Below are positions 36,818 to 61,762 of a stretch of 64,000 nt of DNA, piece by piece. The stretch comes from Tenericutes bacterium HGW-Tenericutes-1. Its GTDB lineage: Bacteria > Bacillota_I > Bacilli_A > Izemoplasmatales > Hujiaoplasmataceae. Every line of letters starts with the position of its first letter. The first letter of the stretch is position 1. The stretch is taken from the NCBI GenBank assembly GCA_002839155.1, contig PGXM01000007.1:1-64000 (forward strand). The letters are read 5' to 3'. The notes beneath the pieces were generated by a model, which ran no database searches, was not told the DNA's origin, and was given only the letters and a program-made list of their open reading frames with translations. The position numbers were made by a program, and so were the translations under genes.

Positions 36818-37828
36818 TTATTCGCCAGTAATACCCGTTTTTTCGATACCTTGAACGAAAGATTTTTGTCCAACGAAATAGATGAGTAATAATGGGATAA
36901 TAGAAATCACGGTCGCAGCCATTTTATAAGACTCAACCAATTGCATTCCAGATCCTTCATCTGGTCTTGCAGGGTCAGAGGCTCTTGTGCCAAACAAGGA
37001 ATCGAATTTACCGAGTTGATTGGTAAAGAGTTCTACTCCATCACCGACCAGCATATTGGTGACATACGTCTCATTCCAGTTCCAAACAAATGAAAACAAG
37101 AAGACGACGACAATCGTAGAAAGTGATAGTTTGATAGTGATGTGCCAGAATAATTGAGCGGGATTCGCTCCATCGATTTTACCAGCTTCATATAAATCAT
37201 TGGGAATGAGTTTAAAGAAGTTGACGAAAATCATAATTAAAATTGCACTGTTAACTCCTTGGCCAAAGAATGCCATGATGAGTTGCGATTGATAAGTATT
37301 CAATCCTTTTCCAACGCCAGTCCATTCGAATTGTTGGTATAGTGAATTAAACATGTTGTATTGGGTAATTAATAAAATCGGTACTGGAATAATAAACGAT
37401 AGTAACAAAACGGTATAAAGGAATTTTTTTCCTCTAAATTCATAACGAGCAAATGCAAATCCGGTTAATGCTGAAATAACCGTTTGGAAGAATGCGAGTA
37501 AGAATGAATATTGGATAGAATTAACCAAAGAAACTGACCCATTCAGTACACGCCAAGCAACCGCAAAGTTCGAAAAAGAGAAAACTTTTGGGAACCATAC
37601 AACCTCTGGATTAACCAAATCAGTGGATGTCATAAACGAAAGAGAAATCATTTTGAGAATTGGAAATAAGAATACATAAGCAATGGTAATTAAGAAAACA
37701 TAAATAACGATTTGTGAAATGATATGTGTAATCCTTGTTTTATGTGTGCGAATATATTCTTTGGTGTTTTGAGAAAGAGTCGTTGTTTTAGATTTAATTA
37801 GTCCAAATTTAGCTAGTAAAGTTTTCAT
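36818..37828 (-). CDS. Sugar ABC transporter permease, MalG type
   Basis: This 336-residue CUT1-family inner permease has six transmembrane segments and the EAA loop YEAGKIDGANPAQLFWHI that contacts the ATPase. It has a long N-terminal cytosolic tail of ~35 residues. It overlaps the MalF-type gene upstream by 4 bases. It belongs to the end of the glucan locus, after DUF5696. The substrate is inferred from context: oligosaccharides from beta-glucan. Confidence 0.92.
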   Translation of the reverse strand: MKTLLAKFGLIKSKTTTLSQNTKEYIRTHKTRITHIISQIVIYVFLITIAYVFLFPILKMISLSFMTSTDLVNPEVVWFPKVFSFSNFAVAWRVLNGSVSLVNSIQYSFLLAFFQTVISALTGFAFARYEFRGKKFLYTVLLLSFIIPVPILLITQYNMFNSLYQQFEWTGVGKGLNTYQSQLIMAFFGQGVNSAILIMIFVNFFKLIPNDLYEAGKIDGANPAQLFWHITIKLSLSTIVVVFLFSFVWNWNETYVTNMLVGDGVELFTNQLGKFDSLFGTRASDPARPDEGSGMQLVESYKMAATVISIIPLLLIYFVGQKSFVQGIEKTGITGE

Positions 37829-38805
37829 TTAACAACCACCTCCCTGTTCTTCTGTTTAAGGCGTCTTTTCGCAATATTCTCCATATTCAAACGTTGAATT
37901 GAAGACAAGGTGACTTGTTTAATTTTTTCTGGTCTACCAAGAAGCAGATAAGCAATTCCTACGAGCGCAAACACAACAATCGTATAGATAAATGCGAATG
38001 TGGACGCAAGTCCAATACCAGCTGCGGAAGTATAAATTGAGTTTTGAATCGTATAGTAGACAGGATTTAAAGCAAATGTTCCTAATTGAACAATGGTGAA
38101 AATGGCGGTAACGAATGCAGTTGGTTTAACGATTGGAACTTTAATTTTCCATAAAATTTGCCAACCATTCGCTCCATCGATTTTCGCAGCTTCATACAAG
38201 TTCACATTAATTTTTTGTAAAGCATTCAAGAACAAAATGACCGGAATACCAGTAAACCATAGAACCATGGTAAAGTTTGAGAATAACCCTGACAAAGCTT
38301 CAGCGAGTCCAGGACTATAAGAAAGAATCATTTTAAAGACAATGTTACTTTCATAGTCTAATAAACTACCTGCGCCATTCCATCTTAATATGCCCGTCAC
38401 AGGTCCACTCATAATAATGACTGGTAAGAAATAAATGACTCTAAAAACTGATTGACCTTTGACACCGGTATTTAATAATATCGCTAAGATAAAACCAACA
38501 ATGATAATCGTTGGAACATAGGTCGCTTCCATGATGACAAAGTCAATGAGTTCTGGGAAGAAATACAAGTTTCTAAATGCAGTCCCAAAGTTACCGCCAG
38601 TAACATTTAAATTGTAAGTATAGACCAAGGTGTTTGCTTCTCTCGTGATTTGGAAAGCGGTGTTATAAATGGTTTGGAAAAATGGGTAGACTACAAAGAC
38701 CAAAAACCCCAACATCCAAGGCAGGATGAATAAGTAAGCAATTTTATTTTGATTTTCAATGTTTGATGTCGCAGTTAACGACTTTAACGTTTTATTTTTA
38801 GCCAT
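37825..38805 (-). CDS. Sugar ABC transporter permease, MalF type
   Basis: The 326-residue CUT1 permease has six or seven transmembrane helices and the EAA motif YEAAKIDGANGWQILWKIKVP. An in-frame GTG at 38814 lies inside the ribosome site, so the ATG at 38805 (AGGAGG at a spacing of ~8) is the start. It is paired with the MalG-type gene downstream (4-base overlap), and the DUF5696 gene ends 1 base upstream. It forms a second permease pair next to 43352-45214, without its own binding-protein gene adjacent. Confidence 0.92.
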   Translation of the reverse strand: MAKNKTLKSLTATSNIENQNKIAYLFILPWMLGFLVFVVYPFFQTIYNTAFQITREANTLVYTYNLNVTGGNFGTAFRNLYFFPELIDFVIMEATYVPTIIIVGFILAILLNTGVKGQSVFRVIYFLPVIIMSGPVTGILRWNGAGSLLDYESNIVFKMILSYSPGLAEALSGLFSNFTMVLWFTGIPVILFLNALQKINVNLYEAAKIDGANGWQILWKIKVPIVKPTAFVTAIFTIVQLGTFALNPVYYTIQNSIYTSAAGIGLASTFAFIYTIVVFALVGIAYLLLGRPEKIKQVTLSSIQRLNMENIAKRRLKQKNREVVVK

Positions 38806-38806
38806 C

Positions 38807-41290
38807 TTACTCACCTCCTAATACAACATAAGAGGATGCTGGAACTTGGGTTGTACCCACCATTTCAGTGCTATCGCCATAGTTGATGAGTATTTCTACG
38901 CCATTGGAATACGTGTTTCTAATCAATCCGGAAGCTAAAACTTCACGATTAATCCAAGTAGCACCGATAACTTCTTTGAGTGCGCCATTAACTGAAAAGT
39001 AGATTTCTTCAATCAATTCTTCATACAATGCATACTCAGTCGAGTAATAAATCGATGAATTCGTGTCTGTTAAAACATACGAAGGTTGCTGTGTTAAAAT
39101 GAATGAAGGATAAAGATTGAAATCGATCATTCTTAACACATCATGGGTGGTATAAAATGAGAAGTTCGCATAGATTGCATACATTTCCATCGTATTTTGC
39201 AATAAGATTTGTAAGAATGGAACCGTATCGGTTTCAATCAAAAATTGAGTGGTGTAAACATCCATTTGTAAGTAACGATCTGTGTATTTGTATAAGTAAC
39301 TATTCGGTTTAGTTAAGTTAAGAATTGCAGTGTCATCATAGGAGGCGAATGCTTCACGATAAAGTTCAATGGCCTGTGTTCTTGTCGTTCCTTCAGCCGT
39401 ATAATCCGTGATTAAGTTTGAAGTCATGCCACTAACAGTTAAGGAATCTGCACCCATCTTTAAGAATGTTTTTGATTGTTTGTGTAGCCATTCAACACTC
39501 TTTAAAGGTCTTGCATAATAAAATTCATAAATCATTTCATTATAGGTTAAGACTCTGCCATACCAACCAGCAGGATGTTTTGTAGCATTGCGGTATAATG
39601 AGATTTGTTCTTCATTAATCAAATAATAATCTTGATAAAATGAGAGATCAATTCCCAGTTCCTTCATTTCTTCAATCGCGTTTCGATAAGCGGCTTTCGA
39701 ACCAATTTTACTTGCAAACTCGGTTTTCGATGGATTGCCTAAAGTTAAACCATCTTTTTGCCAACCCAGCATACCCGAGGAGATGTTCTCAATACCCTTA
39801 GATGAGACATCTTTGAGAATATTAACGACATCTTTTGCCGTTGTTGCGACCATGGTATTGTAACCCACAATCGAATTTTCAGAATCAGCCATGAGGAAAT
39901 CCAAACGAATACCAATATTATCCATCACGGAATTCTTTAGCTTCAATTCTTCTTGTTCAATTAAATAGTCTTTATACTTTAATGCCATACCGACATAATT
40001 AGCTGGGTAACCATCAGTAGATCCATCACCCGCTAAGAAATTATAGTTCATGACGATATCAAAATGATTGATGTCTTCCCAAATGGAAGGAACAGGATTA
40101 TCCCCATCTAGCGTATAAAGTTTATTATAAGAGAAATTATAGTTGAAGTTCACATGGGTTGAATTGTATTTATAAATATTTTCTTCAGGAACAGATATAA
40201 TCGACATATATTCAGAACCGCTCGTCGCATACGCAACAAATGCCGCTTGATTATTGCCGTGTGCAATACCATATACAGGGATTGAAGCCGTTTTAAATGG
40301 AACATAAGCTCCGCTTGTTGTTAGGTAATTTTGGTAACTTTGAGAAGCGTCATCGCCATAGATTGTCGCTTTAAATGATCTTAAAGAAACAGAATTATCA
40401 CGGAATCGAATCAAAGCACCTGTGCCATCAGGAACAAAGGCATATCCGCCAATCATTTCTTCTTGAACATCTACTACGGTGTAATCAGCATCTTCTTCGC
40501 CAATAGCGTCAATGGCGGTATAAACCGCATTCACGCCACCGACTGCACCCATATAGTTCGCAATACCAATATTAGAAAGATATGGTAAAGCGGTACCTGT
40601 TAGGTTTTCATTGAGGATTTCAAGTTTAAATCCCTCATCTGATAAATAGATATCAGCGATGATTTCAAGATCTAAATCTTTATTAACCCCTAGATTGATT
40701 GCACTGACCGTAAAACGCCAGTGTGAAGAATCATTATTGACTTTGGCGATTTTAGAAGTCACTTTATAAAGCGAACTCTTTAAATAACTTGAATAAACGG
40801 TGCTTTGTGAGAAAATTGAATCACTTTCACCTTTTGAGTAATAGTTGAAGTAAATTAATGAATTGGCTTGTAAAGGTCCTGTTGTGGTTCCTGTCAAAGA
40901 ATTGATGCTTGCATCACATTCATCTTGGAACTCACCAAAAGAAATATCTCCATCTTTATAATCCCTTAAAGCCCCTTTACAGGCAGTCGCTTGCGTTGCT
41001 TTAGTGACATTTGGATCGATATCTAACCCTGTTTTCCAAGTATAACCATTGCGTTTGTCAAATACAGCTAAGACATCGCGTTGTTCTTGCCAGTAAAATT
41101 CATAAGTGCTATTTTGCATTAATAATGCATAGCCACCTTCATCGAAATCGACAACAGGGATTTCATCAAGCGTATCGGGATTAACATCCGTATCGCGACC
41201 CGTCGAGACATAAGCAGCGTGTAATACTATTGGAGTCATTGTCGCAACGAATGCAACCATTAATAGAATCAATTTTTTAACCGATAACAT
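38807..41290 (-). CDS. Secreted DUF5696 protein, possible cryptic glycosidase
   Basis: The 827-residue protein starts with a cleavable signal peptide (LHA-A near residue 26). Residues ~45-430 match the DUF5696 entry (YEFYWQEQRDVLAVFDKRNGYTWKTG) and look like a large beta-sandwich. Residues ~455-720 have the alternating strands and helices of a TIM barrel (IGIRLDFLMAD, ISSGMLGWQKDG, LSFYQDYYLINEEQ), and a small beta domain follows. This three-part layout is that of glycoside hydrolases with a mutarotase-like sandwich, GH101 being a remote possibility, but no catalytic pair can be assigned. It lies between two permease sets in the glucan locus. The first bases overlap the NHL-Yip1 gene by 14. 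Confidence 0.8.
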   Translation of the reverse strand: MLSVKKLILLMVAFVATMTPIVLHAAYVSTGRDTDVNPDTLDEIPVVDFDEGGYALLMQNSTYEFYWQEQRDVLAVFDKRNGYTWKTGLDIDPNVTKATQATACKGALRDYKDGDISFGEFQDECDASINSLTGTTTGPLQANSLIYFNYYSKGESDSIFSQSTVYSSYLKSSLYKVTSKIAKVNNDSSHWRFTVSAINLGVNKDLDLEIIADIYLSDEGFKLEILNENLTGTALPYLSNIGIANYMGAVGGVNAVYTAIDAIGEEDADYTVVDVQEEMIGGYAFVPDGTGALIRFRDNSVSLRSFKATIYGDDASQSYQNYLTTSGAYVPFKTASIPVYGIAHGNNQAAFVAYATSGSEYMSIISVPEENIYKYNSTHVNFNYNFSYNKLYTLDGDNPVPSIWEDINHFDIVMNYNFLAGDGSTDGYPANYVGMALKYKDYLIEQEELKLKNSVMDNIGIRLDFLMADSENSIVGYNTMVATTAKDVVNILKDVSSKGIENISSGMLGWQKDGLTLGNPSKTEFASKIGSKAAYRNAIEEMKELGIDLSFYQDYYLINEEQISLYRNATKHPAGWYGRVLTYNEMIYEFYYARPLKSVEWLHKQSKTFLKMGADSLTVSGMTSNLITDYTAEGTTRTQAIELYREAFASYDDTAILNLTKPNSYLYKYTDRYLQMDVYTTQFLIETDTVPFLQILLQNTMEMYAIYANFSFYTTHDVLRMIDFNLYPSFILTQQPSYVLTDTNSSIYYSTEYALYEELIEEIYFSVNGALKEVIGATWINREVLASGLIRNTYSNGVEILINYGDSTEMVGTTQVPASSYVVLGGE

Positions 41291-43340
41291 TGCGCCAGCC
41301 CTCCTTTAGTATTTCTTCAAAGAATACAAATAATTGTTTGATGGTCATTTGAACGAATGATAAAACAAGTAAGATTACAAGGATGAAAACAATGGTGAGT
41401 AAGATACTCTTGATTGTCTCTCCAAATGAATAGTTTTGAATTTCAGATACTGAGATAAAGATTAGTAATAATGTCCAAGCAACGCCAATCACCATGATTG
41501 TATTGAGTAAGAATAATTCATTGGTCGTTGCGACATAACTGAATAATGTTGCTGATATAGAAGCTAAGATGAATGGATAGAAAGAATAAGCAACGCCTTT
41601 ATAGATTTCACCGACGGTTCCTTCACCATCTTGAATTGAAGTAATCATGTAGCTACATACAATGAATAAACCTACTACGACAACGAAGCCTAAGATGATT
41701 GACCCCAAGTCCATATCTTTTAAGTCAACGAACTGGAAGATAAATCCTTTACCAGCGACGAATAACAGATAGGATAAGAATGCTAAAACCAAGATCAAGG
41801 TCGCTCCTAAGTAAGAGCCTTTTGCTTTTCGTCTTAAGTAATAGAATGAATCGTTGGGTTTTGTCGCAACATTTTTCATGTATAAGATATCATTGATGAT
41901 TCTGACATTTTTAACCTTAGAAATGGTATTTCTCGCAGTCGTCAAATAATGATATCGTTTGTCCGTCGCTTTAATCGCAATGACAGCTACTAAGCCAAAC
42001 AAGGAAAGTCCAATAATTAATAACAAGTATTCTTGAAGCCAAATGTTTCTTAGTTCCCAGAATGCTTCAGAATAAAGCATGCGATTTCCAGCAATTTCAA
42101 AATGATAAGCAGCGAGTTCATACTCTTCGGTTTGTAAATAGTTTTTCGCAATGCCGTTATGCGCTAAAATTGACAATTGGTTGAGTTTAAGGACCTCACT
42201 CCAAATCGCAATCGACTCATCATAACGTGTTTCGTTATAGTCGTTAATTGCTTCATAAATCATATTAGCGTAATCGGTTGGAACGAAAGATTGAATGTAA
42301 CTATTGCTAGAATCCGCGGTCCATATATGACCGTTATCATCAACGGTAATCGAGGCTAAAGTTTTAAAAATACCCGCAATAGCGAAATCGTAAGATCCAC
42401 CAAAGGTGTAGATGAATTCACCGTCATTGGTGTAAACATCAATCCACCCCCCTTGGTCGGCTGTATAGATAATCCCCGATTTATCAGTGAAAATATCAAT
42501 AAGTTTTGTGTTTGATAAAAATACCTCAGACAACATATTCGTGCCTTGCGTATTATGTTTCTTCATGTTCTCATTTCTAAATTGAGACGAGGATGATGAA
42601 TAAACAATCCCATTGTTATCGATAAACACTGAAGTGAATACCGGTGGCGTAAAGTTAAGGCCTAAATCGGCTAATTGCTCGTCACTATAGATGAATTGTT
42701 GGAATTGTTCTCTTAAAGATAAAGTCACTTTATTGGCTGAGAAGAATCCTAAAAATCCACCCGTATTTGATAATTGAACGATACCATCTGAAGATCCCTT
42801 AGAGACAACATACATGATACCTGCTTTATCAACTGCGATTTTTTCAGGTTGGAAAAGTAAGGTTTCATACATGATGGAATCAGGTTTCCCGAAGGTTTGA
42901 AGCAAGGTTCCTGTTGCATCAAAATGGAACACTTTTCCTGCTGTAGGGTCAGCGACATAAATGTCACCTTCGGTAATGTACGCTGACGTATTCATGACAG
43001 CGAATAAACCTTGAGGATTGACCATTTCTGGATGTGTAATGTCCCATGAAGTTTTTGTTTGTGTATTATACACGACAACTCTTTTATTGCCCGAATCAGC
43101 AATTAAAAGTTCATTTTGACTATTGAATGTAATATCTTTCGGAGCATCTAACCCTAAGAATGTTATGGTTTGCCCAGGCAAATAGGCATCTTGGGTCCGA
43201 ACGTATTCATAATCATCATCTAAAGCATAGGTGTAGGTCGTTGAAGAGGAAGCGTCTGTTCTAAGAACACTTGACGAAATCGCAAGTCCTAAAACGAGAG
43301 CTGACAGCGACAAGACCATGAATTTTTTAAATAGTCTCAT
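41277..43340 (-). CDS. NHL-propeller / TPR / Yip1 membrane protein
   Basis: This 687-residue protein has a signal-like N-terminus and an extracellular NHL-type propeller at residues ~55-350 (LDAPKDITFNSQNELLIADSGNKRVVVYN; LFQPEKIAVDKAGIMYVVS; LASITVDDNGHIWTADS). A short TPR segment (~357-420), one transmembrane helix (~433-452), a cytosolic stretch (~455-510) and a C-terminal Yip1-family five-helix membrane domain (~510-680) follow. It may sense or organise glucan fragments at the membrane near the ABC importer. No enzymatic residue was found. AGGAGGAG precedes the ATG. It is embedded in the operon between the first permease pair and DUF5696. Confidence 0.82.
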   Translation of the reverse strand: MRLFKKFMVLSLSALVLGLAISSSVLRTDASSSTTYTYALDDDYEYVRTQDAYLPGQTITFLGLDAPKDITFNSQNELLIADSGNKRVVVYNTQTKTSWDITHPEMVNPQGLFAVMNTSAYITEGDIYVADPTAGKVFHFDATGTLLQTFGKPDSIMYETLLFQPEKIAVDKAGIMYVVSKGSSDGIVQLSNTGGFLGFFSANKVTLSLREQFQQFIYSDEQLADLGLNFTPPVFTSVFIDNNGIVYSSSSSQFRNENMKKHNTQGTNMLSEVFLSNTKLIDIFTDKSGIIYTADQGGWIDVYTNDGEFIYTFGGSYDFAIAGIFKTLASITVDDNGHIWTADSSNSYIQSFVPTDYANMIYEAINDYNETRYDESIAIWSEVLKLNQLSILAHNGIAKNYLQTEEYELAAYHFEIAGNRMLYSEAFWELRNIWLQEYLLLIIGLSLFGLVAVIAIKATDKRYHYLTTARNTISKVKNVRIINDILYMKNVATKPNDSFYYLRRKAKGSYLGATLILVLAFLSYLLFVAGKGFIFQFVDLKDMDLGSIILGFVVVVGLFIVCSYMITSIQDGEGTVGEIYKGVAYSFYPFILASISATLFSYVATTNELFLLNTIMVIGVAWTLLLIFISVSEIQNYSFGETIKSILLTIVFILVILLVLSFVQMTIKQLFVFFEEILKEGWRNVIG

Positions 43341-43351
43341 AATGTCTCCTC

Positions 43352-44224
43352 CTACTTGATTCCTGAGTGACTCATCGTATCCATCACGTTGCCTTGCATG
43401 ACGATAAAGATGATCAAATTAGGAATGAACATAACCAGTCCGGCAGCTGCAGCAATCCCCACTCCTGCTGGACCTGCTGTTGCTGCGGTTAATGTATTCA
43501 TATAAAATGCAAATGTCTTTTTAGTTTCATCAATTACATAAATGTTCGATGATTCCGTGGTGTTCCAAATGAATTGGAAGGACAAAATCGCTACGGTTGC
43601 GAGCGCTGGTTTTACGAGCGGTCCAATGATTTTTGTGACGATATGCCAATCGTTGGCACCATCGATCTTCGCTGCCTCAATGAGCTCATCTGGCACCTGG
43701 TCGATAAATTGTTTAACTAAGAACAACCCAACGGGCATTGCAAGATAAGGAATGATATGCGCTGCAAACGAATTCGTTAATCCAAGGGTAGTTACAACTA
43801 AGTATCTTGGAATCGCAACTGCAGTCGCAACGAACATTAATGCCGTTTGGTTGATTGAAAACAACGTCTTCTTCGCTTTAAAGTTTTTCTTAGAAAGTGC
43901 ATAACCAGTCGCAAGCGTAATGAGAATCGTCAAAAGAATCGTCGCTACCGTAATAAAGATAGAATTGAAGAAATAACGTGTCATCGGTACGCCTGTACCT
44001 GAAGCTGTTCTAAAGAGTCTTGCAAAGTTATCTAGCGTTGGATTCGAAACAAAGAATCTTGGTGGGAATAAGAATAATTCTGATAAGGGTTTAAATGCTT
44101 GGCTGACAACATATAAAACCGGTAATAACATGAATAAGCCAACTGGAACCAGTAAGAAATAGAACTTCAATTGTGATTTATGGAAGGATTTCGGATTAAT
44201 TTGTGTCCCTAAGAAACTAGCCAT
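43352..44224 (-). CDS. Sugar ABC transporter permease, MalG type
   Basis: The 290-residue CUT1 permease has six transmembrane helices and the EAA loop LIEAAKIDGANDWHIVTKIIGPLVKP. The start ATG has GGTGAT at a spacing of 5. It follows its MalF-type partner by 6 bases. Together with the 995-residue binding protein they form the first complete importer of the locus apart from the ATPase. Confidence 0.93.
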   Translation of the reverse strand: MASFLGTQINPKSFHKSQLKFYFLLVPVGLFMLLPVLYVVSQAFKPLSELFLFPPRFFVSNPTLDNFARLFRTASGTGVPMTRYFFNSIFITVATILLTILITLATGYALSKKNFKAKKTLFSINQTALMFVATAVAIPRYLVVTTLGLTNSFAAHIIPYLAMPVGLFLVKQFIDQVPDELIEAAKIDGANDWHIVTKIIGPLVKPALATVAILSFQFIWNTTESSNIYVIDETKKTFAFYMNTLTAATAGPAGVGIAAAAGLVMFIPNLIIFIVMQGNVMDTMSHSGIK

Positions 44225-44230
44225 TTATCA

Positions 44231-45214
44231 TCACCGATCCTTTTCGCCGAATAAGCGGTAAGCCACTCTTGAGAACATTAAAATCAATAACAAGAGTAAT
44301 ACAGAAAGTGCTGCCGCATATCCCATTTCATAACGAATAAAACCATAATCATCAATATGGTTAACAATTAACTGACCTGCGTATTGCGGCGTTGGGTTAG
44401 ATCCCGACAACGCAACACCAATACCGCCGGCATTGAATGCACCAACAATCGCCATAACCGCACCGAATAACATTTGCGGTTTCATCGAGGGAATGGTGAT
44501 ATAAAAAATCTCTTGAAGACGGTTTTTAATGCCGTCGATATAAGCCGCTTCATACATTTCGCGGTTGACATTTAAAATACCTGCTAGCATCGATAAGAAG
44601 CCAATGCCCATCGAACTCCATAACGTTACGAATATCATGATGCTCATCAAATAATCGCCAGATTGGAGAAAATCAATCGGGGTATTTACAAATCCTAAAT
44701 CAAGGAAGATTGCATTGATATAGCCCGATTTATCGCCTGAGAATAAAGTTCTAAAGATAACACCTGTTAAAACGCCCCCCAGCATTGAAGGGGTATAAAG
44801 TGCAAGCGCTAAATATTTTCTGGGTGTTGATTGAATTTGAGAAAGCATCCAAGCCATGAGGAATGATAAAGCATATCCTCCTGGTCCGGTAATGATGGCG
44901 TATTTTAACGTATTAGGTAAAACATAACGTAAGAATACTTCATCTTGCGTCAAAATCATGATGTAGTTATAAAATCCACCCATCTTCGCATAGACAGGCA
45001 TTTCAATGACGTTAAAATAGGTAAATGATAAACCCATAGCCACTAAAACTGGAATAACTATAAACAAGGTGAATAAAATAATATATGGCGCAAGTAATAA
45101 TACGGTTGATAATTTGTCTTTATCAACTTTTTCCCATGCAGGTTGAATCTTTGTTTGATAGAGTTTTTTGAGTTTGTTATCTTTTTTCTCTATCTTGTTT
45201 TCTGCCATCATCAT
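44231..45214 (-). CDS. Sugar ABC transporter permease, MalF type
   Basis: This 327-residue CUT1 permease has a charged N-terminal tail of ~40 residues, six or seven helices and the EAA loop [26 protein letters not shown]. The EAA loop deviates at its centre (IDGIKNRLQ instead of IDGANxxQ), while the other three permeases keep the consensus. The start is an ATG triplet run overlapping the stop of the binding-protein gene as ATGA. Confidence 0.92.
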
Positions 45215-48198: not shown

Positions 48199-48239
48199 AA
48201 AAGTCCTCCGTGTTTTTCAAAAAATTGGGTATTTTCGTA

Positions 48240-48264: not shown

Positions 48265-48294
48265 ATTATATCATAACTCTAAGAGTTATGCCAA
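48265..48294 (-). promoter_or_regulatory. Promoter of the binding-protein/permease operon
   Basis: Minus strand: TTGGCA (48289-48294), 18-bp spacer, TATAAT (48265-48270). The spacer contains the perfect palindrome ATAACTCT-A-AGAGTTAT (48273-48289). Confidence 0.8.
48273..48289. promoter_or_regulatory. Perfect 17-bp palindrome between -35 and -10
   Basis: ATAACTCT-A-AGAGTTAT fills the promoter spacer and touches the last base of the -35 box. It is the classic position for a repressor or an MerR-type activator site. Confidence 0.6.
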
Positions 48295-48300: not shown

Positions 48301-48334
48301 ATAAAGAAAAGGTGTGCTTTTTTGAGCACACCTT
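48301..48334 (-). terminator. Terminator of the solute-binding lipoprotein gene
   Basis: Stem AAGGTGTGC (48309-48317) / GCACACCTT (48326-48334) with an 8-nt loop; T-rich beyond on the minus strand. It lies 11 bases after the stop of 48346-50085. Confidence 0.9.
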
Positions 48335-48345
48335 CAGTCAATTTT

Positions 48346-50159: not shown

Positions 50160-50177
50160 TATGTAAATGGTTACATA
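50160..50177. promoter_or_regulatory. 18-bp palindromic operator of the glucan regulon
   Basis: TATGTAAATGGTTACATA, the reverse complement of TATGTAACCATTTACATA. Here it lies just upstream of the -35 box of the binding-lipoprotein promoter; the flanking T/A extends the arms. Confidence 0.75.
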
Positions 50178-52392: not shown

Positions 52393-52393
52393 T

Positions 52394-54343: not shown

Positions 54344-54353
54344 AAAAACCTTC

Positions 54354-55892
54354 CTAATTTGGGATTTGCCAGACAAGACTTGTCAAGCTGCTTTTCGGTA
54401 ACTTAGCCACAAAATATTGGCCACGCCACTGAAAAGTGACGTTTCTTTCTGCGCCATCATTGAAGACGACCACTGTAATTTTTCCAGTATCGTCAATGAA
54501 GGTTGTTACAAGTAGTGTTGTATTGTTAACTTGCGTATGAATTCTTTTTGCACCCATTTCAACATATTTTGAGAAATGAGCGGTAACATAAGCATCGGCT
54601 TCTAATTCAAATCCGGCCGATCCATTTTCTGGAACCGTCACGAGGCCAGTACAATTCGTACAACCCCCTAAATGGGTGTTGCCATAAGGGTCCATCACTA
54701 AATTCCAATAAGTCGTTCCCATGGCATAACGATTATAAGCCTCAGTATACATCCTTCGAACAGACCATTCCATATTACTTTCAATGTTTTGATAGGTCGT
54801 GATCGCGGTACACTCAGTCATGAAAACTTCTAAATTTGGCGCATCCGTTCTTAAATAATCTAAGTAATCATACATATCGGAATCATCGCCGGTATAGCAG
54901 TGAATTCCAACTGCATCGACATACTGAGCCGATGCTGTATCTGAGATGACTTGGGTTGGAAACTTAATGATATTTCCACTATTATCAACGGGATTATGAT
55001 CCCAAATCATGATTTTAGTGTCAAGTCCTGCAGCTTCTAGTAAAGGACCTAAATAAACACCGACAAACTGACGAGTACTTGAAACCGTCCAAGTCATTCC
55101 AGGGTATTCGTAAGATGCATAGTAAGGCTCATTTTGAACTGACAAATAATTGATTTCTATGCCTTCTAACGCATAAGCTTGAATAAACTTAATTAAGTAA
55201 TTTGCATAGGTTTCAAAATAAATGCTTTTTAAACTGCCTTGATAAAGACTATTAGACGTTTTCATCCAAGCTGGAGCACTCCAAGGCGCAGCCATAAATA
55301 CTATGTCTGGATTAACTTCTAAAGCGTCTTTTAATACATCGATAATCACTTGATCCTTTTCGATTGAAAATTGGGTCAACTCAGGATCTGCGACATTGCC
55401 TACCGTATCGTTGTAAGAATAATGTCCTATGGAAGGCGTCACATAATCACTTGCACCAACACAAAGACGAATTAAGCTAACATTCATTCCATCATCGCCA
55501 AAAATGTATTCAATAATCTCGTCGCGATCCACTGAATTATTGATTAAATAGGCTGACGAATAAGTTAATGCTGCGCCAGTTCCACCAAACGGTTGGTATT
55601 GAACTGAATCATCAATCGTAATTGTTAGGGTTGATTTTGAGCCTGTATTCCAATCATTGATATTAACGCCAATGTTTGAAAAAGCCAAAGTATTATTTGA
55701 TGCAAAAGCAGATACTATCGTTTGACTGACATCAATAGTAGTCGTCGTGGTTGTTGTGGTGGATGAAGATGAAGACGTCACCGAAGATATGATTTCTGAA
55801 GTAGTCGTTGAAAACGTGGTTGTTTGTTCTGTACAAGCGGTTAAAATAAAGACAAATAGTATGGATGATAAGACGGTTATAAAGCGTCTCAT
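54354..55892 (-). CDS. Surface lipoprotein GH30 glycosidase
   Basis: This 512-residue lipoprotein has the signal MRRFITVLSSILFVFILTAC (Cys20), a Ser/Thr linker (residues ~21-52), and a GH30 barrel with side beta domain. PFGGTGAALTYSSAY, SAPAWMKTS, acid/base Glu255 in SVQNEP and nucleophile Glu360 in FMTEC are all visible. GH30_1/3 members include endo-beta-1,6-glucanases and beta-glucosidases; in a laminarin-type locus a beta-1,6-branch-cleaving role is most likely. It starts in an ATGA overlap with the GH5 gene and has no strong ribosome site, so it depends on coupling. Confidence 0.92.
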   Translation of the reverse strand: MRRFITVLSSILFVFILTACTEQTTTFSTTTSEIISSVTSSSSSTTTTTTTTIDVSQTIVSAFASNNTLAFSNIGVNINDWNTGSKSTLTITIDDSVQYQPFGGTGAALTYSSAYLINNSVDRDEIIEYIFGDDGMNVSLIRLCVGASDYVTPSIGHYSYNDTVGNVADPELTQFSIEKDQVIIDVLKDALEVNPDIVFMAAPWSAPAWMKTSNSLYQGSLKSIYFETYANYLIKFIQAYALEGIEINYLSVQNEPYYASYEYPGMTWTVSSTRQFVGVYLGPLLEAAGLDTKIMIWDHNPVDNSGNIIKFPTQVISDTASAQYVDAVGIHCYTGDDSDMYDYLDYLRTDAPNLEVFMTECTAITTYQNIESNMEWSVRRMYTEAYNRYAMGTTYWNLVMDPYGNTHLGGCTNCTGLVTVPENGSAGFELEADAYVTAHFSKYVEMGAKRIHTQVNNTTLLVTTFIDDTGKITVVVFNDGAERNVTFQWRGQYFVAKLPKSSLTSLVWQIPN

Positions 55893-56893
55893 GGTTTTAA
55901 AATGTCTCTTTCAACCAAGCCACGGAAATTCCAACCACTGTTGTAATCGCTAATTTTATACGACCAAAATACCCATCCTGTAATTTGATTATAGGCGTCT
56001 AATTGGGCCTTCGCAAAGGCTTTTTCAAAGGCTTCTCTACCATCTTTATACTCATATTGTCTTGCACCTAAACTCCATTCGCCGACAATAACAGGAACCA
56101 CTTTTTCCATATCTTTCATTTCTTTGACAATCGTTTTTGGAAAGTTTAAAAATTCGGTTGGTTCCATCTTATGGAATTGCTCGCCAAAACATTGATAACG
56201 ATGCGTATCTAAAATCACATTTTTCATTTTGTTCTTAGTAAAGAATTCTTTCCAAGGTTCAAAACGGAAAGAATCATGAAACACGATGAAAGTCTCGGGT
56301 TTCAAAATTGGACGCAAACGTTGATAGGCACGAACATAAAAATCTTGCATTAAAGCCATGTCAATCGTCCAGTGCGGTTCATTCAATACTTGTAAAGAAT
56401 GAAGTGCAGGATGATTTTTATAACGTGTTGCAATATCTTCAAGCACATCTAATGTGATATCAATATTTTTAGGGTCTTGATGCCATGTTAAAACACCATC
56501 AATACCACCATTATCAAAACCGTTTTGCGAGCCTGGAGCGGTATGAAGATCAAGCATGACTTTCATGCCTTCTTGATGAATAAAATCCATGGCTTGGTCT
56601 AGATAATGAACTGGGGTGACATAAGGATGTGGAAATTGATATTTTTCTGGAAATAGCCACCAAGGAATCGGGATTCTAACCACTTCAATGCCTTGGTTTT
56701 TGAGCCAGCGGATGTCATCTTGAACAATCCAGGTTTTCCAGTGTTCTTCTAGTGCTTCTTTTGCGTGTGGATGATTATTGACAAAAGAAGTCTCGCATCT
56801 CGCTTGAATTGGGTATTGTTCAAATAATGATGGTTTCATCCATTTTTCTAAGACGAACCATCCGCCTAAATTAACTGCTTTTAATGGTTTCAT
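55889..56893 (-). CDS. GH5 exo-beta-1,3-glucanase-like enzyme
   Basis: The 334-residue cytosolic enzyme matches the GH5_9 group best known from yeast Exg1: VNLGGWFVLEKWMKPSLF, VVRIPIPWW, LDLHTAPGSQNGFDNGG, acid/base Glu172 in VLNEP, nucleophile Glu272 in VGEWS. There is no signal peptide, whereas yeast homologues are secreted. It would remove glucose from the non-reducing ends of imported beta-1,3-oligosaccharides. AGGAG precedes the ATG. It is the second gene of the operon that begins with GH30 at 58228. Confidence 0.93.
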   Translation of the reverse strand: MKPLKAVNLGGWFVLEKWMKPSLFEQYPIQARCETSFVNNHPHAKEALEEHWKTWIVQDDIRWLKNQGIEVVRIPIPWWLFPEKYQFPHPYVTPVHYLDQAMDFIHQEGMKVMLDLHTAPGSQNGFDNGGIDGVLTWHQDPKNIDITLDVLEDIATRYKNHPALHSLQVLNEPHWTIDMALMQDFYVRAYQRLRPILKPETFIVFHDSFRFEPWKEFFTKNKMKNVILDTHRYQCFGEQFHKMEPTEFLNFPKTIVKEMKDMEKVVPVIVGEWSLGARQYEYKDGREAFEKAFAKAQLDAYNQITGWVFWSYKISDYNSGWNFRGLVERDILKP

Positions 56894-56902
56894 TGAATTC
56901 TC

Positions 56903-58228
56903 CTAAAATATAAGTGTTATGATTGAACGAGCAGGGATTTCATATGTTTCTGATTTTTGGTTGAGAATGGTTGTGAAGTCTTGTGCTGACTCTTTTGAAT
57001 TCATCACAACCAAAGCGATTTCTCCGTTTGGATTTTTAAAAGCAACTGATAATAAATTATCTGTCTTATTTTTAAGCCCTAAACGAACCGCTCCCGGTTT
57101 CACAAATTTAGAAATGTGGCCAATGTAATAATAGGATGTTTCTTGAATAATTTTTTCTGGGAATATATCTAAAATAATGGGTGCGTCACAAACGTTATTC
57201 ACGTGGTTTGGTCCCCCTAAATTATCTAAGAATAAATTCCAATCGATATAGCCTTGACAATGATTTAATAAATCACCCATCATGTTTCTAGCGTAACGTT
57301 CACCAGATTCCCATTTGTATTTATGAGTGCTAAAATCCTCAACGCAGCCTTCAGTGAATAAAAGCCCTTTATTTGGGAATAAATCATGGACTTTACCAAC
57401 ATTTTCAAATGCTTCTGAGACATACCAATGGAACGCTGTTCCCCAAACATACTTTGCGGTTTCTGGATCTGATAAAATCGGAGTGACTCTCTCAACCATG
57501 ACATCACGGTTGTGATCCCAGACCAAAATATTAACATCTTTAGCGCTAGAGTTTGTTAAGATAGGACCTAAGTGATTTTTGACAAAATCGCGCTCTTGAA
57601 TAGCTGAATAAATGCAGGAATCCCAACGTTGAACCGCTGCCGGTTCATTTTGAACCGATACACCCCAAATAGTCATACCTTCCTTACGGTATTCTTCAAT
57701 AAATCTAACATAGTATCTAGCCCAAGCATCGGCGAATTCTTCTAACAAATGACCACCACGAATCGGTGAATTGTTATCCTTCATAAAAGCAGGAGGAGTC
57801 CATGGAGATCCAAGTAATTTAATGGGTTGTCCAGCAATTCGTTCTGCGTCTTTAATGGTAGGAATAACCCATATTTTATCTCTAGAAATATTGAAGGTTT
57901 TTAAGTCAATGTCTCCTTCTTCGATATAAGTATAGCTATTCAATGAAAAGTCGCATCCATGTATGGATACACGTCCTAGGGTATAACCAATACCTTCTTC
58001 AGGATCAAAGTAGAGTTTTAACGCTTTTTCACGAACTTCTTTAGAAACGCGGTAAAGGTTATAACAAGCCGATTCAGTAAATGCTCCACCGAACCCTAAA
58101 ATGGTTTGGTAGGTTTTGTCTGTTTCAATCGTTAGAAATTGATTTGAGACGGCTTTTGGTTTTAATAAATGTGATACTTCGCTCAAACGGTAGTTTGAGT
58201 CTTTCGCTGTTAGGATGATTTTTGACAT
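56903..58228 (-). CDS. Cytosolic GH30 glycosidase
   Basis: The 441-residue protein without signal peptide has a GH30 barrel: TILGFGGAFTESACYN, GRVSIHGCDFS, SPWTPPAFMKDN, acid/base Glu195 in SVQNEP and nucleophile Glu293 in LFTEGC. The glucosylceramidase-like consensus (RVSIHGCDFS, CEDF-type) is closer to GH30_1/3 than to xylanases. It is a paralogue of the surface GH30 at 54354, so the same linkage is probably cut outside and inside. AAAAGGAG precedes the ATG. It is the first gene of a five-gene operon under the palindromic operator. Confidence 0.93.
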   Translation of the reverse strand: MSKIILTAKDSNYRLSEVSHLLKPKAVSNQFLTIETDKTYQTILGFGGAFTESACYNLYRVSKEVREKALKLYFDPEEGIGYTLGRVSIHGCDFSLNSYTYIEEGDIDLKTFNISRDKIWVIPTIKDAERIAGQPIKLLGSPWTPPAFMKDNNSPIRGGHLLEEFADAWARYYVRFIEEYRKEGMTIWGVSVQNEPAAVQRWDSCIYSAIQERDFVKNHLGPILTNSSAKDVNILVWDHNRDVMVERVTPILSDPETAKYVWGTAFHWYVSEAFENVGKVHDLFPNKGLLFTEGCVEDFSTHKYKWESGERYARNMMGDLLNHCQGYIDWNLFLDNLGGPNHVNNVCDAPIILDIFPEKIIQETSYYYIGHISKFVKPGAVRLGLKNKTDNLLSVAFKNPNGEIALVVMNSKESAQDFTTILNQKSETYEIPARSIITLIF

Positions 58229-58250
58229 AATTATATTCTCCTTTTATTCT

Positions 58251-58268
58251 TATGTAACCATTTACATG
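58251..58268. promoter_or_regulatory. 18-bp palindromic operator of the glucan regulon
   Basis: TATGTAACCATTTACATG, 4 bases downstream of the -10 box of the GH30 operon, covering the expected start of transcription; one mismatch at the last position against the 50160 copy. Confidence 0.8.
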
Positions 58269-58272
58269 CTTA

Positions 58273-58301
58273 ATTATACAATATATTGTATGCGATTTCA
58301 A
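58273..58301 (-). promoter_or_regulatory. Promoter of the GH30-GH5-GH30-GH3-GH3 operon
   Basis: Minus strand: TTGAAA (58296-58301), 17-bp spacer, TATAAT (58273-58278). Confidence 0.85.
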
Positions 58302-58326
58302 CCTTTGAAAAAACGAAATGAAATCA

Positions 58327-58354
58327 CCAAAAAAAATAGGTCAAAAAAGACCTA
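58327..58354 (-). terminator. Terminator of the GH94-GH16 operon
   Basis: Stem TAGGTC (58337-58342) / GACCTA (58349-58354), 6-nt loop, followed on the minus strand by eight T. The GH16 stop codon is in the stem. Confidence 0.85.
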
Positions 58355-59095
58355 CTTTTCAATGATGTCATAATATCTAACATATTCGATTGGAAATTCA
58401 CAAGGGTATTCGTCAACTCCGACTTCGCCACCCCATGAACCGCCGATAGCAATATTTAAAATGAGATAATAAGGTTTGTCAAATGGCCAACCTGAAATTG
58501 ACGTATCATAACCTGCTTCTAATTTATCCCAACGCTTGAATGATTTTCCATCGATAAAGAATTCGATATAATCCTTGGTCCAATCCATGGCATATTCATG
58601 GAATCCTTCTGTAATACCTTTAACGACTTCAAAATGTGTTCTTTGCGTTCTTTTAACATGGTTATAAAGCTCAGTATGTAAGCTGACATGTATCGTTGAC
58701 ATCATTTTGGTAACGTGTTCCATGATATCAATTTCACCACATTTTGGCCAGGGTGTACGACTCCCACTTTTAATATCAACTGGAAGCATCCAAATAGCTG
58801 GCCAAGCCCCTTTTGAAGTTGGCAGTTTTGCTTTGACGGCGATACGACCATATTGGAAATGTTTGCGATCATACGTAATCATTCGGCAGGAAGTGTAAGG
58901 GCAATCTTCATATTCTTCAATTCGGCCTTGAAGCACCATTTTCCCATCTTTTACTTCAACATTTAACCCTTCGGTATAATATTGAACTTCGTTGTTGCCC
59001 CATCGTCTTGCGCCGATATCGTAATTCCATTTTTTTGGGTCAGGTTTGCCTGTATAGTCAAACTCGTCTCCCCAGACTAAAAGATACTCTTTCAC
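58352..59095 (-). CDS. GH16 endo-beta-1,3-glucanase (laminarinase-like), no signal peptide
   Basis: The 247-residue protein is a GH16 jelly-roll with the catalytic motif GEIDIMEH (nucleophile Glu121, Asp123, acid/base Glu126), the non-bulged form of laminarinase-type GH16. WGDEFDYTG, NNEVQYYTE, GAWPAIWMLP and the terminal YVRYYD strand are typical. It starts at a GTG directly after the GH94 stop (TAAGTG). There is no signal peptide, so this endo-enzyme acts in the cytosol, implying import of fairly long oligosaccharides. It is co-transcribed with the phosphorylase. Confidence 0.95.
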   Translation of the reverse strand: MKEYLLVWGDEFDYTGKPDPKKWNYDIGARRWGNNEVQYYTEGLNVEVKDGKMVLQGRIEEYEDCPYTSCRMITYDRKHFQYGRIAVKAKLPTSKGAWPAIWMLPVDIKSGSRTPWPKCGEIDIMEHVTKMMSTIHVSLHTELYNHVKRTQRTHFEVVKGITEGFHEYAMDWTKDYIEFFIDGKSFKRWDKLEAGYDTSISGWPFDKPYYLILNIAIGGSWGGEVGVDEYPCEFPIEYVRYYDIIEK

Positions 59096-61762
59096 TTATT
59101 GAATTCTCCCTAATGTGATAGTAAATAATTGACTTTCTGTCACTGACTCTTTGTTAATTAAATAAGTTTCACTTTGTACTTTTACACCATTAACAGATTC
59201 AATGACGTATTCGCCATAATTTAAATTTTCAGCATTTTGAAATCTGATTTCACAAAGATGCTCATTAATCATCGTATTGATTGAAACTGAACCACTCAAA
59301 AAATCACTTGATAAAAGCTTTGGTTGAATTAATAAATCACCAAATTGACCTTTAATGCCAAAAATTTGTTCTATATACGTTAAAACCATCCATGAAGCCG
59401 AACCTGTCAAATAATGATATAATCCCCTACCTGATTGATCGATATATTCAGATATTCCCGGTAATATTTTTGCTTTATCAATATCTGACATATATCGATA
59501 TAATGCATCGACAATTTTGCGACCTTCATAGACAAATCCGTTGTCAAGTAAACTATAAGCATACATGATAGCCATGTGAGAGAACATAGAGCCATTTTCT
59601 TTATGTCCATAAGCAAAGCCCATAAAACGGCCCATATCCATGGTGTTTTCTTTAAAATTAGTGTTTAATCGTGGAATCTGAATTGTTGGGTCAGTTAGAT
59701 GTTGATTGACTGCGTTAACCATTTTTTGAATTCTTGATGAGGTAGCAATTTGACTCATTAGCACAAATGTTTGTCCCGTCAACGTCATCTTAGGAAAAGA
59801 ATTATCAGTCGATTCAAGACGCAATCCGTGGTTGTTATAATAACCATTGTACCAACCTGTATTATCATCTTGATTGAGCCATTCTGCTTCATTTAGATGT
59901 TTGTAAAATTGTTGATATTTCGCCATTAAATCATCCATAATATCTTGAATATTGAAGGTCACCAATTCTCCAGATATTTGATGTTTCACTAAAGAAAAAT
60001 ACTGAGCTAAGAGCGCTCTCTTTGCTTTGGGATTAGTATAATCTATTTGATGATGTAGCGTATCAAATAGAATGGATGATTCTTTTGACAAAGAAATCGA
60101 TTCGATATTTTTTGTTTTTATGTATTTTAATATATTAACAAGTTTTAATAAATTACCGGTATAAAGTGCGGTAAAAGCAACGGTTTCTCCCTTTTCTTTT
60201 GCCATATCCATACCATCGTTCCAATCAGCGTCTTCAATTCGGATATTCCCATGATCGCCAACGTTAAAGAATGGAATAACATTTTGCAATAGCAGATGTT
60301 CTAATACACTACCTTGGTAGATGTCATTGTTTGAATTTAATAAAAAATTCCCTTGAGTTTCAGAATATGAAGCATCAATTGAATGCGTATAATGAGCAAA
60401 TTTATCTTTAAAATAAGTTTGTTTTTCAAATAAGAAATCAATGTCACCCGTACGGTTTAAATAACGATCAACCGTTAACAAGGGCCAAGCACCATGGTCC
60501 GACCAAACACGAACAATTTTATTGCGGTCGGCGTGGAATTCACCGCGGGCAATACCAACAATCGTTGCGTTAGAACCATCGATTCTAACCCCTGCGAAAT
60601 GACCTAAAATATCTTCTCTTACACGGTGAGGTTCTTTAAAAATTAGTGACAATGAGTCTTGCCATAAATCGCGCCAGCCTCTTCCACCGCGTCCATAATC
60701 ATGGTGTGGTAAAAATGAACAACCATAAATACGACGCATCGTGGGCTGTAAACAAACCCATTTAGTCCATCCAGTTAATGAATCGTCACCTAAATAGAAA
60801 TCAATTGATTTTAGTTGTTCTTTCCAAAAATCAAGTGATTGAGTAAAGAGCGTTTCAAATTGATTAAATGAGAGATATTGTTTCACTTGTTTTTTCAGCA
60901 AATTCAAGGAAGGAGACATAAAAATACCGAAGAGAATCGTAAAAGAATTATTTGGATTTAACTCTACAGTATTATATCCGAGTCCTGCAATAATATCATA
61001 CCCATCGACTTGACTACCAACATGATATGAAGAGGGTTGATTATTTCGAGGTGTAATGGGATAAAACATATCATTGCCTTCACCCACAAAATCATTAAGG
61101 ATAGGCGTATAAGTATTAACTTCTTCATGTAAACTTGATTTTGAAAACACACCGTATAATGCACCATTATGACGATGCCCACGTTCGTCAAATTTCATTG
61201 AAGGTTCATTGACAATTCCATCTTGCAAAACCGTTCCGCGGTTGAGTAACGAAGTGACATGTCGGTGGTCTCTAATATTATCAGCGCTTCGCCCATAGAT
61301 TGGAACACCAATGGTAGCTTTCACTTCTAAGGTTTTTGCTGATTTATTTGTGAAGGTCACTAGATGCAATTCAGCGTTCACATTTTCTGTAGGAACAAAA
61401 CTTTTGACAGAAACAAAAAATTGGTCATTCTCACGACACACTTCTTGATAAACTAAGCCACCTTTTAAGGTCACTTTATCAGGATTTAATTTTTGAAATG
61501 GGGTTTTTCCACTCGTTGACCATAAATTGTCATCGACTCGAAAAAAGACATTTCGACTTGGAATTGTATTGACTAAATCCTCTGAAGAAACTGGAGTCAA
61601 AGCGTAATGATGATGATCTAGTTTTGTGTCTCCGCCTAAATTCGGCGAAATAGCAGACATAATCCCAGATTCATTAAAGAGTGGCATGTAAAGATAATTG
61701 AAATCTTCTGCGTTTTCTAAAAGAAACTCTCCAGATTTTTTAATTTTTAATTGATGGGTCAT
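59096..61762 (-). CDS. GH94-type beta-glucan/oligosaccharide phosphorylase
   Basis: The 888-residue protein has the clan GH-Q architecture: N-terminal beta-sandwich, helical linker, (alpha/alpha)6 barrel and C-terminal jelly roll. LPHHDYGRGGRGWRDLWQDSL and DHGAWPLLTVDRYLNRTGD line the phosphate/substrate site; the general acid is the Asp in DADWNDGMDMA at about residue 513. It would phosphorolyse beta-glucosidic oligosaccharides to glucose-1-phosphate. Related families GH149 and GH161 act on longer beta-1,3-oligoglucans, and GH94 laminaribiose phosphorylase is known in Acholeplasma. With the neighbouring GH16, a beta-1,3 specificity is likely. GAGAGG precedes the ATG. Confidence 0.9.
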   Translation of the reverse strand: MTHQLKIKKSGEFLLENAEDFNYLYMPLFNESGIMSAISPNLGGDTKLDHHHYALTPVSSEDLVNTIPSRNVFFRVDDNLWSTSGKTPFQKLNPDKVTLKGGLVYQEVCRENDQFFVSVKSFVPTENVNAELHLVTFTNKSAKTLEVKATIGVPIYGRSADNIRDHRHVTSLLNRGTVLQDGIVNEPSMKFDERGHRHNGALYGVFSKSSLHEEVNTYTPILNDFVGEGNDMFYPITPRNNQPSSYHVGSQVDGYDIIAGLGYNTVELNPNNSFTILFGIFMSPSLNLLKKQVKQYLSFNQFETLFTQSLDFWKEQLKSIDFYLGDDSLTGWTKWVCLQPTMRRIYGCSFLPHHDYGRGGRGWRDLWQDSLSLIFKEPHRVREDILGHFAGVRIDGSNATIVGIARGEFHADRNKIVRVWSDHGAWPLLTVDRYLNRTGDIDFLFEKQTYFKDKFAHYTHSIDASYSETQGNFLLNSNNDIYQGSVLEHLLLQNVIPFFNVGDHGNIRIEDADWNDGMDMAKEKGETVAFTALYTGNLLKLVNILKYIKTKNIESISLSKESSILFDTLHHQIDYTNPKAKRALLAQYFSLVKHQISGELVTFNIQDIMDDLMAKYQQFYKHLNEAEWLNQDDNTGWYNGYYNNHGLRLESTDNSFPKMTLTGQTFVLMSQIATSSRIQKMVNAVNQHLTDPTIQIPRLNTNFKENTMDMGRFMGFAYGHKENGSMFSHMAIMYAYSLLDNGFVYEGRKIVDALYRYMSDIDKAKILPGISEYIDQSGRGLYHYLTGSASWMVLTYIEQIFGIKGQFGDLLIQPKLLSSDFLSGSVSINTMINEHLCEIRFQNAENLNYGEYVIESVNGVKVQSETYLINKESVTESQLFTITLGRIQ

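What the first reader, a model, noticed from the sequence alone, without database searches (positions are those of the whole stretch)
36818..61762. A complete intracellular-plus-surface beta-1,3/1,6-glucan utilisation system in a Mollicutes-like genome
Seven candidate carbohydrate-active enzymes (GH94-type, GH16, two GH30, GH5_9-like, two GH3), two solute-binding proteins, four permeases, a DUF5696 protein and an NHL/Yip1 protein lie in one 25-kb stretch. Two enzymes are surface lipoproteins and five are cytosolic. Most cultured Mollicutes are thought of as having few such genes, so a locus of this size is notable.
Basis: partly seen in the sequence, partly recalled or inferred. Interest (0 to 1): 0.85.

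Follow-up and report, generated by a model that had tools for sequence, protein, structure and literature searches.

The report
Beta-glucan uptake and digestion operon
A wall-less bacterium carries a 28-kb gene run for importing and digesting beta-1,3/1,6-glucan (laminarin- or fungal-wall-like sugar chains); such loci are already known in Acholeplasma, but the import part is a strictly ordered eight-gene block, shared by many Bacillota and some Treponema, that I found nowhere described.

Summary
All seven CAZymes, two solute-binding proteins, four permeases, NHL-Yip1 and DUF5696 genes are intact, on one strand, at the stated coordinates. Family searches support beta-1,3/1,6-glucan: GH94 laminaribiose phosphorylase (6GGY, E 1e-247), GH16 laminarinase, GH30 endo-1,6-glucanase-like lipoprotein, GH5_9-like exo-1,3-glucanase, GH3s. 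The transcription unit is longer than claimed (61.85 to 33.55 kb). It includes the ATPase and three copies of a conserved 16-bp operator found, at zero mismatches, nowhere else in the genome. The locus alone is not complete: the only surface GH16 endo-glucanases found, and a GH161 phosphorylase, lie on other contigs. Rarity in Mollicutes fails: A. laidlawii and A. oculi clusters were published in 2019. What appears undescribed is the import block: SBP - giant SBP - permA - permB - NHL/Yip1 - DUF5696 - permC - permD. From the giant SBP on, this order was exact in 51 of 55 loci tested, in Bacillota and Treponema, beside enzymes for beta-1,3-glucan, beta-mannan and apparently other glycans. DUF5696 folds like GH129/GH101/GH36 glycosidases, with a poorly conserved nucleophile position. 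Best reading: a portable ABC importer module for long beta-glycans, feeding cytosolic endo-cleavage and phosphorolysis. How the module works is inferred.

The parts
61850..61877 (-). terminator-like stem-loop of the upstream gene, left boundary of the unit
   Evidence: 12-pair stem plus T run
61804..61833 (-). promoter TTTACA-18-TATAAT (11 of 12 matches, TG extension) upstream of GH94
   Evidence: TATAAT conserved in relatives
61782..61797 (-). operator ATGTATACGGTTACAT just downstream of the -10 box
   Evidence: conserved upstream of GH94 in 7 other loci of the same family
59096..61762 (-). GH94 laminaribiose phosphorylase (cytosolic)
   Evidence: 6GGY E 1.1e-247; Pfam GH94 domains
58352..59095 (-). 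GH16 endo-beta-1,3-glucanase, no signal peptide (GTG is the first possible start)
   Evidence: (3ILN laminarinase E 2.9e-67)
58273..58301 (-). promoter TTGAAA-17-TATAAT upstream of cytosolic GH30
58252..58267 (-). operator ATGTAAATGGTTACAT just downstream of the -10 box
56903..58228 (-). GH30 glucosidase/glucanase, cytosolic, closest to 2WNW and human GCase
55889..56893 (-). GH5_9-like exo-beta-1,3-glucanase, cytosolic
   Evidence: 6ZB9 E 5.5e-50; yeast exo-1,3-glucanases
54354..55892 (-). GH30 endo-beta-1,6-glucanase-like surface lipoprotein
   Evidence: NF053856 E 7e-72 but 242 bits, cutoff 700; 5NGK E 4e-52; LTAC lipobox
52394..54343 (-). GH3 exo-1,3/1,4-glucanase-like surface lipoprotein (start taken at the internal ATG)
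   Evidence: 3USZ exo-1,3/1,4-beta-glucanase, barley ExoI
50215..52392 (-). GH3 beta-glucosidase, cytosolic (start taken at the internal ATG)
   Evidence: 7MS2
50161..50176 (.). operator upstream of SBP579 (palindrome; matched on + strand)
48346..50085 (-). SBP579, solute-binding lipoprotein (no Pfam hit; a homologue stands at this position in most complete modules, 50 of 53 with a lipobox-like motif)
48308..48335 (-). terminator-like hairpin between the two SBP genes
48265..48294 (-). promoter TTGGCA-18-TATAAT upstream of SBP995
45211..48198 (-). SBP995: N-terminal membrane anchor, two beta-sandwich domains (second CBM35-like), helical linker, C-terminal sugar SBP
   Evidence: pLDDT 88; Lin1841 E 1.5e-23; 5X7G region E 3e-5
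44231..45214 (-). permease A (MalF/UgpA-like, EAA loop)
43352..44224 (-). permease B (MalG/UgpE-like, EAA loop)
41277..43340 (-). NHL beta-propeller plus Yip1 membrane domain protein
38807..41290 (-). DUF5696 protein, GH129/GH101/GH36-like fold, exported or anchored
   Evidence: (pLDDT 89.6)
37825..38814 (-). permease C (EAA loop)
   Evidence: (just below the Pfam cutoff)
36818..37828 (-). permease D (MalG-like, EAA loop)
36054..36737 (-). VTC-domain (polyphosphate polymerase-like) protein, conserved in this locus within the family
35358..36041 (-). DUF4956 membrane protein, next to VTC
34791..35336 (-). PucR-type HTH_30 protein next to the ATPase
33576..34787 (-). MalK/MsmK-like ABC ATPase, probable motor for both permease pairs
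   Evidence: 90-97% identical in family members
33547..33568 (-). terminator-like hairpin, right boundary of the unit

Best explanation
This is a regulated beta-1,3/1,6-glucan (laminarin- or fungal-wall-type) utilisation operon of an Izemoplasmatales-like Mollicute. It is built around a portable eight-gene ABC import module. Outside, lipoproteins clip the chain: a GH30 at beta-1,6 branches and an exo-acting GH3 from this locus, plus two GH16 lipoproteins encoded elsewhere. The lipoprotein SBP579 and the membrane-anchored SBP995 (CBM-like domains fused to an SBP), probably helped by the NHL/Yip1 and DUF5696 proteins as a surface glycan-docking assembly, hand long oligosaccharides to two permease pairs. 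Both pairs are powered by the MalK-like ATPase at the end of the unit. In the cytosol GH16, GH30, GH5_9-like and GH3 enzymes shorten and debranch the chain, and GH94 phosphorolyses laminaribiose to glucose 1-phosphate plus glucose, saving ATP. A repressor acting on three palindromic operators switches it. Shown here: gene content, order, conservation, operator sites, predicted folds and family assignments. Inferred: substrate, the docking role of NHL/Yip1 and DUF5696, ATPase sharing, and repression.
For: GH94 matches laminaribiose phosphorylase over its full length. GH16, GH5, GH30 and GH3 have nearest solved relatives on beta-1,3 or 1,6-glucans. Two of seven enzymes carry lipoboxes and five have no signal. 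Cytosolic endo-acting GH16 implies import of long chains. Whole-locus synteny holds in the family. The import block (SBP995 to permD) is in exact order in 51 of 55 loci with enough flank, from Acholeplasma to Lachnospiraceae, Bacillaceae and Treponema. The same block occurs in the same genome beside GH130 x2, an epimerase and a GH2 mannosidase, so the module is substrate-portable. All four permeases keep EAA loops. The SBP995 C-terminus matches the beta-1,2-glucan SBP Lin1841, and its second N-terminal sandwich a region of 5X7G. Operator copies sit directly behind the -10 boxes of the two best promoters before GH94 and GH30, are conserved in relatives with palindromic changes, and occur genome-wide (0 mismatch) only here.
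Against: No activity, binding or expression data. Subfamily assignments rest on nearest solved relatives; the GH30 lipoprotein misses the NCBIfam equivalog cutoff (242 vs 700 bits). Some beta-glucosidase families here also act on other beta-glucosides. NHL/Yip1 and DUF5696 could have roles other than docking. The pairing of SBPs with permease pairs is unknown.
Confidence: 0.78

Rival explanations
1. An ordinary Gram-positive glucan locus with two independent CUT1 ABC importers (SBP995+permA/B and SBP579+permC/D) that happen to be adjacent; NHL/Yip1 and DUF5696 are unrelated passengers. This is close to how the 2019 paper read the Acholeplasma clusters.
For: Each permease pair looks like a standard MalF/MalG pair; the published reading treated permC/D as a separate incomplete transporter lacking an SBP.
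Against: NHL/Yip1 and DUF5696 sit between the pairs in the same order in 51 of 55 loci, across phyla and beside different enzymes. Passengers would not be kept in fixed order.
Confidence: 0.15
2. DUF5696 is an active exo-glycosidase of a new GH family (GH129/GH101-like fold) that trims chain ends at the surface, rather than a binding or scaffold protein.
For: High-confidence GH129-like model; a carboxylate at residue 688 in 49 of 49 sequences, near the expected acid position; D or E at the beta4-end position in 30 of 49.
Against: The nucleophile-equivalent position is Ser in this protein and variable across the family. The placement of that position was inferred from strand counting, not from a superposition.
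Confidence: 0.3
3. The true substrate is fungal or yeast wall beta-1,6-rich glucan (pustulan-like) or mixed-linkage glucan rather than laminarin.
For: Two GH30 enzymes, one close to the endo-1,6-glucanase BT3312; GH3 relatives include exo-1,3/1,4-glucanases.
Against: GH94 laminaribiose phosphorylase, GH16 laminarinase and GH5_9-like exo-1,3-glucanase all point to a beta-1,3 backbone.
Confidence: 0.3

Closest known systems
Acholeplasma laidlawii and A. oculi GH94/GH161 beta-1,3-glucan gene clusters (Kuhaudomlarp 2019, PMC6484121)
   Same: GH94 laminaribiose phosphorylase, GH16, GH3, ABC permeases and SBP; A. oculi (L130) carries the same eight-gene import block
   Different: Here GH161 is unlinked; GH30 and GH5_9-like enzymes are in the operon; the section of the paper read here describes two clusters sharing an SBP and mentions neither NHL/Yip1 nor DUF5696
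CUT1-type oligosaccharide ABC importers (MalEFGK2, Lin1841-type beta-1,2-glucan importer)
   Same: MalF/MalG-like permeases with EAA loops, MalK-like ATPase, SBP sequence nearest to Lin1841
   Different: Two permease pairs, two SBPs, a giant SBP with CBM-like domains, plus NHL/Yip1 and DUF5696 in fixed order
GH129 (NagBb, ZgGH129), GH101, GH36 glycosidases
   Same: Overall fold of DUF5696 (target TM-score 0.71-0.74 to GH129)
   Different: About 10% identity; nucleophile-equivalent position not conserved; located in transporter operons
Blautia producta mixed-linkage glucan locus (PMC10318527)
   Same: GH16, GH94 phosphorylase, SBP and ABC transporter in a Gram-positive glucan locus
   Different: Six genes, ordinary single transporter, AraC regulator; no Yip1 in the text

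Membership tests
GH94 laminaribiose phosphorylase | Full-length similarity to a characterised LBP, far above other GH94 | tested here: met
   6GGY 828 bits over residues 9-860; cellobiose phosphorylases at most 61 bits
GH94 laminaribiose phosphorylase | Phosphorolysis of laminaribiose | not testable with these tools
   needs enzyme assay
GH16 endo-beta-1,3-glucanase (laminarinase) | GH16 domain with ExDxxE motif, nearest relatives laminarinases | tested here: met
   (EIDIME)
GH30 endo-beta-1,6-glucanase (BT3312 equivalog) | NCBIfam NF053856 score over its cutoff of 700 bits | tested here: not met
   242.5 bits; best solved relative is still 5NGK, so it is described only as 'like'
GH5_9 exo-beta-1,3-glucanase | Nearest solved relatives are exo-1,3-glucanases; both catalytic Glu present | tested here: met
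   no CAZy subfamily model was available, so the subfamily itself is not formally tested
CUT1 carbohydrate ABC importer | MalF/MalG-type permeases with EAA loops, extracellular SBP, MalK-type ATPase | tested here: met
   ATPase 33576-34787
CUT1 carbohydrate ABC importer | A single permease pair per system | tested here: not met
   two pairs separated by NHL/Yip1 and DUF5696 in the intact loci
GH129/GH101/GH36-like glycosidase (for DUF5696) | Fold | tested here: met
GH129/GH101/GH36-like glycosidase (for DUF5696) | Conserved catalytic nucleophile at the end of beta4 | tested here: inconclusive
   residue 620 D20/E10/S6/T5 of 49, Ser here; position assigned by strand order, not superposition
Acholeplasma-type beta-1,3-glucan locus | Import block plus GH94 or GH161, GH16, GH3 | tested here: met
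   (L118, L130)

The most novel reading that the evidence does not exclude
The SBP/SBP995/permA/permB/NHL-Yip1/DUF5696/permC/permD block is a distinct class of polysaccharide importer: a multi-protein surface docking and translocation machine that lets monoderm bacteria (and some Treponema) take up long beta-glycans whole. It would be a functional counterpart of SusCD-type selfish uptake, with DUF5696 as a pseudo-glycosidase glycan clamp.
Probability: 0.3. Interest if true: 0.8.

Novelty: new variant of a known kind. Interest (0 to 1): 0.5.

Why it matters
The glucan locus itself extends a known Acholeplasma trait to uncultured wall-less bacteria. The larger value is the transporter. A strictly ordered eight-gene module with two protein families of no assigned role here (DUF5696, NHL/Yip1) recurs in at least dozens of Bacillota and some Treponema species, paired with cytosolic phosphorolysis or hydrolysis of several glycans. 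If it imports long chains, it would explain how wall-less and Gram-positive bacteria feed on polysaccharides without losing products to competitors, and would give a function to DUF5696.

Tried and rejected
(1) Considered that the cluster might be decayed: rejected, all frames and catalytic motifs are intact. (2) Considered GH94 as GH149 or GH161: rejected, 6GGY (GH94 LBP) scores 828 bits and GH161 only 21. (3) Looked for the repressor. The LacI at G000:C24 (178760-179728) has a related palindrome 84 bp upstream, conserved in several orthologues. But no close orthologue was found in G002, G004 and G020, which carry the operon, and orthologues occur in genomes without it, so it is kept only as a weak candidate. 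(4) Two-mismatch operator hits elsewhere do not exceed the reversed-pattern control and were dismissed. (5) 16S search of the genome found none, so placement rests on relatives' record titles. (6) Pfam on the separate N-terminal domains of SBP995 gave nothing above cutoff. (7) Papers mentioning DUF5696, or Yip1/NHL with SBPs: none in the held library. (8) The GH3 on contig C4 lies beside alpha-amylase and oxidoreductase genes, not a second import module.
Full report
OBSERVATION. On the minus strand, in the direction of transcription: GH94, GH16, GH30, GH5, GH30, GH3, GH3, SBP579, SBP995, permA, permB, NHL/Yip1, DUF5696, permC, permD. The run then continues through VTC, DUF4956, a PucR-type HTH protein and a MalK-like ATPase. 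Terminator-like hairpins at 61877-61850 and 33568-33547 bracket a unit of about 28 kb.

ENZYMES. GH94 matches laminaribiose phosphorylase 6GGY over its whole length, E 1.1e-247. GH16 is nearest to laminarinase 3ILN. GH5 is nearest to fungal-type exo-beta-1,3-glucanases. The lipoprotein GH30 is nearest to the structure 5NGK and to the endo-1,6-glucanase model NF053856, but misses that model's cutoff. The cytosolic GH30 is nearest to 2WNW and human glucocerebrosidase. The lipoprotein GH3 resembles exo-1,3/1,4-glucanases and barley ExoI; the cytosolic GH3 resembles beta-glucosidases. Catalytic motifs are all present in the translations, so 'most genes inactive' finds no support. The enzyme set fits a beta-1,3 backbone with beta-1,6 branches.

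COMPLETENESS. The locus alone lacks a surface endo-1,3-glucanase. The same genome encodes two tandem GH16 lipoproteins at C21:158.9-161.4 kb, and a further GH16 without a signal peptide at the edge of C9. A GH161 phosphorylase lies at C4:105.5-108.7 kb, a full-length match to 9QQK. No transpeptidase (PF00905) was found, consistent with a wall-less cell.

CONSERVATION AND REGULATION. The order is conserved in other genera of the family (g1, g2, g3, g4, g7), between the cdaR-type receptor/sufB genes and the ATPase. A 16-bp palindrome lies directly behind the -10 box of the two promoters before GH94 and GH30, and upstream of SBP579. It is conserved at the same places in relatives with palindromic changes (ATGTAACTGTTTACAT, ATGTAAACAGTTACAT). 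With no mismatch it occurs nowhere else in the genome. It looks LacI/GalR-like. LacI genes sit in comparable loci (L088 by Pfam; L130 by reading its translation). The repressor here is not identified.

THE IMPORT BLOCK. A scan of 84,980 species genomes found 453 DUF5696-encoding loci, and 80 were kept. Of 55 with enough flanking sequence, 51 show SBP995-permA-permB-NHL/Yip1-DUF5696-permC-permD in exactly this order; the four exceptions look like ORF-calling fusions, a split ORF or one locus without a recognised SBP995. Sources include Acholeplasma oculi, Paracholeplasma vituli, Haloplasmataceae, Erysipelotrichaceae, Lachnospiraceae, Bacillaceae and Treponema. GH16, GH5 or GH94/GH161-type genes lie within the stored flank of 49 of the 80. 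Others sit beside GH130, an epimerase and a GH2 mannosidase (same genome), PF10091 plus GH35 (a Bacillaceae locus, L168), or GH38 (a Treponema locus, L136). In a sample of 295 genomes of the same phylum, 45 had DUF5696 over the cutoff; by my count 41 of these are full-strength matches. In paralogous loci permA/permB are mostly 51-65% identical to the window's, while permC/D, SBP995, NHL/Yip1 and DUF5696 are mostly 25-38%. This suggests a constant core and variable substrate-facing parts.

STRUCTURES. The DUF5696 model (pLDDT 89.6) matches GH129, then GH101, GH36 and GH31. The residue at the end of beta4, where these families keep their nucleophile (from memory), is D/E in 30 of 49 sequences and Ser here, while D688 is nearly invariant. 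This assignment was made by strand order and needs a superposition. SBP995 (pLDDT 88.2) has a C-terminal sugar SBP nearest Lin1841 and MalE types and two N-terminal beta-sandwiches, the second matching a region of 5X7G that from memory is CBM35.

PRIOR ART. Kuhaudomlarp et al. 2019 (PMC6484121) described A. laidlawii and A. oculi clusters with GH94 LBP, GH161, GH16, GH3 and ABC parts, and noted the missing SBP and NBD. In A. oculi L130 the permeases, NHL/Yip1 and DUF5696 are one continuous block. So the glucan locus is a known kind; the fixed module around DUF5696 appears undescribed in the library held here, which lacks most subscription papers.

VERDICT. Observation confirmed. The substrate interpretation is well supported; 'complete' and 'notable for Mollicutes' are not. 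The most interesting part is the portable import module, whose mechanism remains inferred.

Noticed in passing
34791-36737: VTC (polyphosphate polymerase-like), DUF4956 and PucR-type HTH genes lie between the import block and its ATPase in every same-family copy of the locus that extends that far; a second VTC-DUF4956 pair lies on contig C9 (L099). A link between phosphorolysis and polyphosphate is possible but untested.
   Followed up: partly
L074 and L100 (G000:C20:150-188 kb): Second copy of the import block with GH130 x2, GlcNAc-2-epimerase family, GH2 mannosidase, LacI, SASA esterase and a 1572-aa Ig-like surface protein: a probable beta-mannan locus.
   Followed up: partly
L191 (G000:C24:178760-179728): LacI-family regulator with a TGTAA-N4-TTACA palindrome upstream, conserved in several orthologues (L197, L198, L201-L203); weak candidate regulator of the operon.
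   Followed up: partly
L168, L171, L173-L180: Bacillaceae carry the import block beside ORFs of about 400 and 800 aa; in L168 these are a PF10091 enzyme (putative glucoamylase; possibly GH144-like) and a GH35-type enzyme, suggesting another substrate.
   Followed up: partly
48308-48335: Strong hairpin terminator between SBP579 and SBP995 followed by a good promoter; may raise SBP579 expression relative to downstream genes.
   Followed up: no
L021 / L071 (G037:C2): A laminaribiose phosphorylase gene in a relative is split by a TAA stop, suggesting local loss of the pathway.
   Followed up: no
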